Part shown: piece after piece, positions 52,835 to 54,898 of the stretch
Layout of the letters: each line of letters begins with the position of its first letter
Numbering within the stretch: position 1 is the first letter of the stretch
Assembly (NCBI GenBank): GCA_017451645.1
Contig: JAFTNZ010000027.1
Span: 1-61,680, forward strand
Length of the DNA: 61,680 nt
Origin: Bacteroidaceae bacterium
Lineage (GTDB): Bacteria > Bacteroidota > Bacteroidia > Bacteroidales > Bacteroidaceae
Direction: 5' to 3'
Notes under the pieces: generated by a model
The model's input: only the letters and a program-made list of their open reading frames with translations
What the model was told of the DNA's origin: nothing
Database searches by the model: none
Program-made: the position numbers and the translations under genes

Positions 52835-54898
52835 TTATCGACTTTTTGTCCAATTAGATAGGTCTCTTATTAATTTCTTGACTTGCAGCGAATTGGTGGT
52901 GTCAATGCAGTCTATTTGGCCAAAGTTGAAGAGAAACCATCCTTTGAGGTATGCCCCTTTCAGAAGCAATGGGATAATCTTTTTTCCTGAATTTTTAGCA
53001 TACATTACTTCGTCCTTTGTCCATCTCGATTGGATGGAATGGTCGGACAAAGCAAAGAGTATATAGGATGAATTGTCTATGGCAGAGATTATCTTATCCT
53101 GAAACTCATCGCCACTCTCAATCCCTGTGATGTCAAACCAGCACGTCAGCGAGGGAATGCGTTCTTTTAGCATTTCGACAAAGCGGTTTACCTCGTCAAA
53201 ATCTTTTCGTGCATAGCTGATGAAAATGTCGTATTTCATGTTGGCCCTGCTTTGCTGTGTATATGGTTTACTTTCAGCTCTATAATACGTATTAGTTCCT
53301 TTGTTTTTTAAAGCGTTGCTCTCGTTGCCTGTCATAGAACCAACCATTATATTATGTAGCCTATTTTTCATGCCTTTAATTTCTTCAGGTGTAAGAGAAC
53401 CGCTTGATTCTATACGGATAGCTTGTTCTTTTCCTGTAGTTTTATCTTTTGCAGAAACCTTGAGAATCCCGTCGGCATCGATGAAGTATATGACTTCAAT
53501 CTGAGGTATGCCACGAGGGGCTGGAGTGATGCCGGTGAGGTTGAACTGTCCGATACTCTTGTTTTGAGCTGCCATTTGATGTTCACCTTGTAATATGTGG
53601 ATGGTTACCTCAGTTTGGTTATCATTAGCTGTAGAGAAGGTCTCTATTTTACGGATAGGAATAGATGTGTTGGCATCAATCATTTTGGTCATTATACCAC
53701 CAGCTGTCTCAATTCCAATTGACAGAGGAATAACGTCGAGAAGCACGATGTCGCCTACTCCCTCTTCATGGTAAAGGATAGCACCTTGGATAGAAGCACC
53801 TACGGCTACTACCTCGTCGGGGGTCACTCTCCTTGAAGGATCCTTGCCAAAGTAGTCCTCTACCAGCTTCTGTACGGCGGGGATACGGGTTGAACCACCC
53901 ACGAGGATTACTTCATCAATGTCGGCATTGCTCAATCCTGCATCGCTCATAGCCTTCTTACAGGGCTCCAAGCAGGCCTGAATCAAGTTGTGAGCCAGAG
54001 CCTCGAACTTGGCACGGGTCAATGTCTTCACCAAGTGCTTGGGCAAACCACCTACGGGCATAATGTAGGGGAGGTTGATCTCTGTAGTTGTGGTTGAAGA
54101 GAGTTCAATCTTGGCCTTCTCGGTAGCCTCCTTCAAGCGCTACAGCGCCATAGAATTCTGAGTGAGGTCGGCACCTTCGTCGTTCTTGAACTCCTGTACC
54201 AGCCAGTCGATGATTACCTGGTCGAAGTCGTCACCACCGAGGTGAGTGTCACCATTGGTTGAGAGAACTTCGAACACACCGCCACCGAATTCGAGGATAG
54301 AGATATCGAATGTTCCACCACCGAGGTCGAACACGGCAATCTTCATATCTTTGTTGGCCTTGTCTATACCATAAGCCAGAGCGGCTGCTGAAGGTTCGCT
54401 GATGATACGCTTCACTTCCAGTCCGGCAATCTGTCCGGCTTCTTTAGTGGCTAAACGTTGACTGTCATTAAAATAGGCTGGTACAGAAATAACAGCTTCC
54501 GTAACTTCTTGTCCAAGGTATGCTTCTGCAGCTTCTTTCAATTCCCTCAGTATTAAGGCACTGATTTCCTGTGGAGAGAAATACTGATTATTGATTTCTA
54601 CATATGGGTATCCATCCTTATTAACAATACGATATTGTACCTGATTGAGTTCTTTCTGATGGATTTCGTTAAAATTCCTGCCAATAAATCTTTTTATAGA
54701 AAAAATAGTATTACGAGGGTTGGTGACTGCTTGGCGTTTGGCTGATTCTCCTATTTTACATCCTCCCTTTTCTAAGAAAGCTACGATTGAGGGGGTTGTA
54801 CGTTTACCCTTGTTTGTAATTACTACAGGTTTGTTACCTTCGAATACAGAAACACATGAGTTAGTTGTTCCTAAGTCAATACCAATAATCTTTCCCAT
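52835..54898 (-). pseudogene. Hsp70 (DnaK) - TIR fusion with one in-frame amber codon
   Basis: One continuous frame of 687 codons plus stop, interrupted only by TAG at 54142-54140. Residues 1-380 form the Hsp70 nucleotide-binding domain (G-I-D-L-G-T-T-N-S-C-V, D-L-G-G-G-T-F-D, V-G-G-S-T-R-I-P). Residues about 385-510 are the beta substrate-binding domain (L-L-D-V-I-P-L-S-I-G-I-E-T, G-Q-F-N-L-T-G-I). The helical lid is cut short and replaced by a linker and a TIR domain from residue 554 (M-K-Y-D-I-F-I-S-Y-A-R-K-D), with the probable NADase glutamate at about 630 (R-W-T-K-D-E-V). The amber replaces the glutamine of M-A-L-Q-R-L found in DnaK. The ATG at 53239 could start a free TIR protein. Confidence 0.88.

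What the first reader, a model, noticed from the sequence alone, without database searches (positions are those of the whole stretch)
52835..54898. Hsp70 whose helical lid is replaced by a TIR domain
The sequence shows a DnaK nucleotide-binding domain and beta substrate-binding domain running into a short linker and then a complete TIR domain with the probable NADase glutamate. Hsp70 binds unfolded or foreign protein segments; bacterial TIR domains degrade NAD to stop infection. I infer a sensor-effector protein in which client binding or ATP state controls TIR assembly. I do not know of a described system built this way.
Basis: partly seen in the sequence, partly recalled or inferred. Interest (0 to 1): 0.85.

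Follow-up and report, generated by a model that had tools for sequence, protein, structure and literature searches.

The report
Broken one-off chaperone–TIR gene fusion
A bacterium carries a second copy of its Hsp70 chaperone gene whose tail has been swapped for a TIR domain of the kind that destroys NAD; the fusion looks real, but we found it in one genome only and it is cut by a stop codon, so it looks more like a failing evolutionary experiment than an established defence system.

Summary
The domain order is real. On the minus strand a DnaK nucleotide-binding domain and beta substrate-binding domain run through a linker of about 45 residues into a complete TIR_2 domain; the helical lid is gone. 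But it is not one open frame: an in-frame TAG at 54140-54142 cuts the nucleotide-binding domain. The same genome has an intact, lidded dnaK on another contig. Against it the fusion is a mosaic: codons 179-360 are nearly identical (dS 0.09), codons 31-148 and 361-505 are diverged (dS saturated and 1.36; dN 0.31 and 0.13), which I read as a dnaK paralogue partly overwritten by gene conversion. No second Hsp70-TIR fusion showed in 15 genus, 399 family, 393 order or 390 phylum genomes (overlapping draws, three of four lists cut), nor in genome-contig, viral, plasmid or phage searches. The TIR half belongs to a modular Bacteroidales TIR repertoire that mostly starts proteins. The neighbouring TIR-WD40 gene is also broken. 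Best reading: a lineage-specific fusion, probably once a sensor-effector gene, now decaying. A live system is not excluded but lacks support.

The parts
54143..54898 (-). First ORF (252 aa): N-terminal part of the DnaK nucleotide-binding domain
54140..54142 (-). In-frame TAG stop (codon 253) that interrupts the nucleotide-binding domain
52835..54136 (-). Second ORF (433 aa, start codon chosen mechanically): rest of the nucleotide-binding domain, interdomain linker, SBD-beta, short linker, TIR domain
53819..54364 (-). Conversion tract: codons 179-360, near-identical to the genome's own dnaK (dS 0.086)
53384..53740 (-). Beta substrate-binding domain, approximate limits
53240..53383 (-). Linker of about 45 residues (42-48, by where SBD-beta is ended) that stands where the helical lid would be
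52835..53239 (-). TIR_2 domain with the gene's stop codon; begins with a Met at the place where its nearest relatives begin their protein
51771..52769 (-). Neighbour: TIR, hydrophobic (transmembrane-like, by eye) segment, first WD40 repeat; first piece of a broken TIR-WD40 gene
50552..51670 (-). Neighbour: remaining WD40 repeats of the same gene in another frame; one repeat spacing near the break is 124 instead of 129 nt
49165..50463 (-). Neighbour: AAA_14/DUF4143 ATPase, PADLOC PDC-S01 candidate-defence family (E 2.7e-142)
48022..49002 (-). Neighbour: uninterrupted TIR gene with a weak Lcl_C/FISUMP-like C-terminal match (just below the Pfam cut-off)
54896..54969 (-). Repeat D6 (also at 49065-49138 and 50514-50587): remnant 3' tail of a WD40-type gene, directly upstream of the fusion

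Best explanation
A lineage-specific dnaK duplicate lost its helical lid and became joined, in a TIR-gene island, to the TIR domain of a modular Bacteroidales TIR-X gene. For much of its life the DnaK part evolved under purifying selection. Most likely (inferred, not shown) it worked like other TIR fusions of the group: the N-terminal partner, here a lidless Hsp70 that binds exposed hydrophobic peptides with fast exchange, brought several TIRs together on a shared client such as an unfolded or aggregating phage or stress protein, and the clustered TIRs consumed NAD. Later a stretch of a normal dnaK was copied over the middle of the gene, and in that stretch residues invariant in other DnaKs have since changed and a stop codon has arisen. 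As it stands the full fusion is not made; at most the second ORF, or a TIR alone from the Met at 53239, is translated.
For: Domain order and missing lid. Intact lidded dnaK elsewhere in the genome. Mosaic: codons 179-360 dS 0.086, dN 0.019 to own dnaK; codons 361-505 dS 1.36, dN 0.13; codons 31-148 dS saturated, dN 0.31. Protein trees: the tract groups with own and G137 DnaK (support 0.77, inside a genus subclade at 0.91); codons 361-505 fall in that subclade (0.97) on a long branch. 27 of 237 columns invariant in 39 other DnaKs are altered (the stop counted as one), six of them in the tract; each ordinary DnaK alters 0 to 7 of its own leave-one-out invariant columns. TIR relatives: 67-72% identical to the N-terminal TIRs of L041-L043; of 64 TIR matches in 61 loci examined, 49 have at most 60 aa upstream and 15 more, among them vWA-TIR and macro-TIR. 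AlphaFold model: the TIR part is mostly confident (ten-residue blocks 64-94) with alternating strands and helices. Neighbouring TIR-WD40 gene also broken.
Against: No expression, enzyme or phage data. Single draft genome, 72.6% complete and 3.0% contaminated, so the stop could be an assembly or strain-level error. The purifying-selection signal may date from before the fusion. Codons 31-148 do not group with the own genus but with two DnaKs of other genera (support 0.88), so that part may have another source or be misplaced by its long branch. The same AlphaFold model gives no confidence to SBD-beta and linker (pLDDT under 50 for residues 1-179; no DnaK rows were in its alignment). No relative shows the fusion in a working state.
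Confidence: 0.6

Rival explanations
1. A live Hsp70-TIR sensor-effector: client binding or ATP state of the lidless DnaK controls TIR assembly and NAD loss; the stop is a minority variant, an OFF state or an error.
For: All domains except the lid are present; TIR with probable catalytic Glu; SBD-beta and TIR are open in one 433-aa ORF; purifying selection on codons 361-505; a TIR island with a PDC-S01 gene.
Against: No homologue of this order in my searches; in-frame stop; changed invariant DnaK residues in the recently converted tract.
Confidence: 0.17
2. Assembly chimera: reads of an ordinary dnaK were joined to a TIR gene in a draft, probably metagenome-type, assembly.
For: Draft genome of 38 contigs; the 97% tract is what a collapsed dnaK repeat would look like.
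Against: The DnaK sequence next to the TIR (codons 366-505) is at most 81% identical in protein to the 39 DnaKs compared, with dS 1.36 to own dnaK (codons 361-505), so it is unique sequence and not a repeat where assemblies jump. The tract carries changes at invariant residues and a stop that a working dnaK would hardly carry.
Confidence: 0.08
3. Two functional units: a dead dnaK fragment followed by a TIR protein translated on its own from the Met at 53239.
For: The Met sits where relatives L041-L043 and the neighbour at 48022-49002 start their proteins.
Against: The frame is open from SBD-beta through the linker into the TIR; a TIR alone would lack the C-terminal partner that L041-L043 have. 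Promoter boxes just upstream of 53239 were not looked for; one -7-like box lies 146 nt before the fusion's start codon.
Confidence: 0.15

Closest known systems
DnaK/Hsp70 (PF00012; own genome L002)
   Same: Nucleotide-binding domain, interdomain linker and SBD-beta; 77% and 86% protein identity for the two ORFs over the aligned parts
   Different: Helical lid and tail replaced by linker and TIR; 27 of 237 otherwise invariant columns altered; stop codon
Bacteroidales modular TIR proteins (TIR-SEC-C-Lcl_C in L041 and L043; TIR with Sel1-like repeats, by eye, in L042; TIR-WD40 in the window)
   Same: Closely related TIR domain, 67-72% identity to L041-L043; island context
   Different: There the TIR is N-terminal and the partner C-terminal; here the order is reversed and the partner is Hsp70
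vWA-TIR (L021) and macro-TIR (L032) proteins of the same bacterial family
   Same: Partner domain N-terminal, TIR C-terminal
   Different: Partner is not Hsp70
GTPase-centred conflict systems with separate HSP70 and GrpE genes (Kaur et al. 2020, PMC7159879; 12 of 17 matching passages seen)
   Same: Hsp70 proposed as part of prokaryotic conflict systems, TIR among the effectors
   Different: There Hsp70 is a separate gene beside GTPases; the passages seen describe no Hsp70-TIR fusion
NADase TIRs AbTIR, Cat1, SARM1
   Same: TIR by sequence; Glu in the W-x-x-x-E position in the AbTIR and Cat1 alignments
   Different: Weak similarity (E 2.2e-7 at best); no activity data for this one

Membership tests
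Hsp70/DnaK | Nucleotide-binding domain with phosphate-binding motifs (GIDLGTTNS, DLGGGTFDIS) | tested here: met
   PF00012 in both ORFs; motifs read in the translation
Hsp70/DnaK | SBD-beta with interdomain linker | tested here: met
   Alignment to own DnaK through residue 512
Hsp70/DnaK | Helical lid (SBD-alpha) | tested here: not met
   Similarity ends at the start of helix A
Hsp70/DnaK | One uninterrupted protein | tested here: not met
   In-frame TAG
TIR domain NADase | TIR domain by profile | tested here: met
   PF13676 2.8e-20, PF01582 5.1e-6, PF08937 3.2e-5, each over its cut-off
TIR domain NADase | TIR fold by structure | tested here: inconclusive
   Mostly confident model of the TIR part, but the fold search could not be run
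TIR domain NADase | Glu at the catalytic position | tested here: met
   Aligned with AbTIR and Cat1; catalytic role recalled
TIR domain NADase | NAD cleavage | not testable with these tools
   No bench work
Thoeris or other named TIR defence system | Match over the curated cut-off of the system's own family, with the partner gene | tested here: not met
   NCBIfam Thoeris III and retron-TIR models score 29.1 of 220 and 38.6 of 600 bits; no ThsA-like gene among the neighbouring ORFs scanned
GTPase/HSP70 conflict systems (Kaur 2020) | GTPase genes next to the Hsp70 gene | tested here: not met
   No GTPase family over its cut-off among the neighbouring ORFs scanned

The most novel reading that the evidence does not exclude
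An Hsp70 chaperone used as the sensor of a TIR effector: a lidless DnaK that gathers TIR domains on unfolded or phage-derived client proteins and so triggers NAD loss, kept intact in other strains of this species and switched off in this one after gene conversion from a housekeeping dnaK.
Probability: 0.15. Interest if true: 0.85.

Novelty: new variant of a known kind. Interest (0 to 1): 0.42.

Why it matters
If a working copy exists, it would tie protein-folding surveillance directly to a suicide-type immune effector in bacteria, an Hsp70 counterpart of TIR-carrying immune receptors. Even as a dying gene it suggests that the mixing of TIR domains with new partners in Bacteroidales reaches as far as the core chaperone, and that gene conversion from a housekeeping gene can overwrite such fusions.

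Tried and rejected
Recoded TAG: thought unlikely, TAG ends 3 of 35 hand-picked genes in the window.

Conserved clade of Hsp70-TIR proteins: looked for by joint SBD-beta plus TIR queries, where a fusion should rank above plain DnaK, and by TIR-plus-linker queries with DnaK tblastn of fetched loci; only the window's own gene came back. The row lists are complete, those of 23, 34, 38 and 72 are cut; a fusion split into two weaker rows could be missed. Of and the 29 best loci besides the window's own were fetched and checked for DnaK, with about 1.5 kb on each side, some cut by contig ends; the other TIR rows were not. Three plasmid and phage matches that ran well past SBD-beta into the TIR part of the query (H6, H7, H16) turned out to be ordinary lidded DnaKs without TIR; H13-H15, which end at query residue 311, were not checked; of 192 plasmid and 36 phage records only 15 and 10 rows were seen.

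Mixed bin: the genome's dnaK region (C38) is 97% identical to G137 over 2.3 kb while the other rows of 500 bases or more of that C38 stretch are 66-82% identical to G137; the window's flanks are 67-80% identical to G137 in rows of 300 bases or more (the row of the fusion against dnaK is 82%). So dnaK itself seems to have moved between species; I cannot tell whether the bin mixes strains. Tetranucleotide profiles do not single out the left 47 kb of the window.

Structure: the model of SBD-beta, linker and TIR (alignment A1, 6 rows, DnaK part alone in its columns) has mean pLDDT 55.1; only the TIR part is usable. Rfam at gathering threshold (45-61.7 kb) and a tRNA scan gave nothing. Literature: the listings and passages of PMC7159879, PMC8195603, PMC8265645, PMC11019930, PMC7075850, PMC9092222 showed no Hsp70-TIR fusion; four hyphenated names of it occur in 0 papers. 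No paper was read whole.

Full report
What is there. The window is the whole contig C20 (61,680 bases) of a 38-contig draft genome, 72.6% complete and 3.0% contaminated. On the minus strand, 54898-54143 encodes 252 aa of a DnaK nucleotide-binding domain; an in-frame TAG follows at 54140-54142 (codon 253); then 54136-52835 encodes 433 aa: the rest of that domain, the interdomain linker, SBD-beta, a linker of about 45 residues and a TIR domain. TAG ends 3 of 35 hand-picked genes of the window.

The TIR. It matches TIR_2 at 2.8e-20 and, among solved structures, an AbTIR-type chain best (2.2e-7), with the glutamate of W-T-K-D-E in register (its catalytic role is recalled). An AlphaFold model of SBD-beta to TIR is confident only over the TIR, where strands and helices alternate; a fold search could not be run. 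Its nearest relatives, 67-72% identical, are the N-terminal TIRs of larger proteins in ruminant-cecum Bacteroidales MAGs (L041-L043). The Met that begins those proteins is still present inside the fusion at 53239. Of 64 TIR matches in 61 loci examined, all picked for TIR similarity, 49 have at most 60 aa upstream and 15 more (some of the 15, such as L019 and L083, may be chance upstream frames); the 15 include vWA-TIR and macro-TIR. Hsp70 is thus one more partner in a modular set, but no other Hsp70 partner was seen.

The DnaK part is a mosaic. The genome has an intact dnaK with lid on contig C38. Codons 1-20 and 179-360 of the fusion are about 97% identical to it in DNA, the rest less. Nei-Gojobori distances to own dnaK: codons 179-360 dS 0.086, dN 0.019; codons 361-505 dS 1.36, dN 0.13; codons 31-148 synonymous sites saturated, dN 0.31. 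For scale, in codons 361-505 own dnaK differs from two genus relatives by dN 0.012 at dS 0.56-0.68 and from a third (L051) by dN 0.058 at dS 1.67; so the fusion evolved faster than dnaK, about twofold at like dS, but still under purifying selection. In trees the middle groups with own and G137 DnaK (0.77), the 361-505 part in the same genus subclade (0.97) on a long branch, and the 31-148 part, on a very long branch, with two DnaKs of other genera (0.88). I read this as an old paralogue partly overwritten by recent gene conversion; the 31-148 part may instead have come from elsewhere. Of 546 bases in the converted tract the fusion has 17 that differ from both own and G137 dnaK where these agree. 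Over codons 1-505, 27 of 237 columns invariant in 39 other DnaKs are altered, the stop counted as one, six of them in the tract; each of those 39 DnaKs alters 0-7 in leave-one-out.

Is it an assembly artefact? The tract alone could be a collapsed repeat, but the DnaK sequence that touches the TIR is unique (at most 81% identical to the 39 DnaKs compared), and the tract carries changes that a working dnaK would hardly keep. I give an artefact 8%.

Is it conserved? With a query of SBD-beta plus TIR the only listed row spanning both parts is the window's own gene in 15 genus genomes, 399 family, 393 order and 390 phylum genomes; these draws overlap, and all lists but the first are cut after the best rows, where a fusion should stand first. 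With linker plus TIR as query, 63 of 399 family genomes and 85 of 385 phylum genomes have a match; the 29 best loci of each besides the window's own hold no DnaK beside the TIR within the DNA fetched. The genome-contig scan (84,980 species, close relatives only) gave 3 confirmed loci of 33 pattern matches, none with DnaK. Viral contigs: no pattern match. Plasmids: 192 records match, phages 36 (15 and 10 rows seen); the three seen rows that run furthest into the TIR part, H6, H7 and H16, are full lidded DnaKs without TIR.

The neighbourhood. Downstream on the same strand lie a TIR-WD40 gene broken between its ORFs 52769-51771 and 51670-50552 (WD repeats are mostly spaced 129 nt, near the break 124), an AAA_14/DUF4143 ATPase of PADLOC's candidate family PDC-S01 (2.7e-142) and an uninterrupted TIR gene with a weak Lcl_C match. 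A 74-nt repeat with the end of a tail coding T-P-E-E-x-R-x-Y-Y-L-E (read in two copies) stands upstream of three genes, including the fusion: probably leftovers of WD40-type genes, so the island has been reshuffled. Its G+C is 43%, against 46-53% in the contig to its left and 52% to its right.

How it most likely worked. Shown: domains, missing lid, mosaic distances, stop. From knowledge of the families (recalled): lidless DnaK still binds hydrophobic peptides but exchanges them fast; TIR NADases are switched on by assembly. Inferred: several fusion molecules bound to one unfolded or aggregating client would bring TIRs together and consume NAD. As assembled, the full fusion is not made.

Verdict. 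Probably real and, as far as these searches reach, without a described or sequenced counterpart (the listings show none), but an orphan and broken. New variant of a known kind, interest 0.42.

Noticed in passing
window 49065-49138, 50514-50587, 54896-54969: A 74-nt repeat that holds the end of a coding tail T-P-E-E-x-R-x-Y-Y-L-E plus stop stands upstream of three different genes of the TIR island, as if gene bodies had been swapped between conserved tails.
   Followed up: partly
L135 10122-12451 (G000:C38) against G137:C51: The housekeeping dnaK and its surroundings, 2.3 kb, are 97% identical between two species whose other matched DNA on that stretch is much less alike, pointing to exchange of dnaK between species.
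   Followed up: partly
window 55054-61680: Right flank with unusual composition, inverted repeats 57531-57591/60508-60568, direct repeats D7 and D8, an amidase, a Lin1244_N gene and an HU-HIG gene: looks like a mobile element.
   Followed up: no
window 56198-56336: About 100-nt stretch with many 77-86% matches across the related genome G137, several close together on its contig C45; an interspersed repeat of unknown kind.
   Followed up: no
L021 877-1923; L032 493-1578: vWA-TIR and macro-TIR fusions in related bacteria; macro-TIR pairs a probable ADP-ribose binder with a probable ADP-ribose producer (roles recalled).
   Followed up: no
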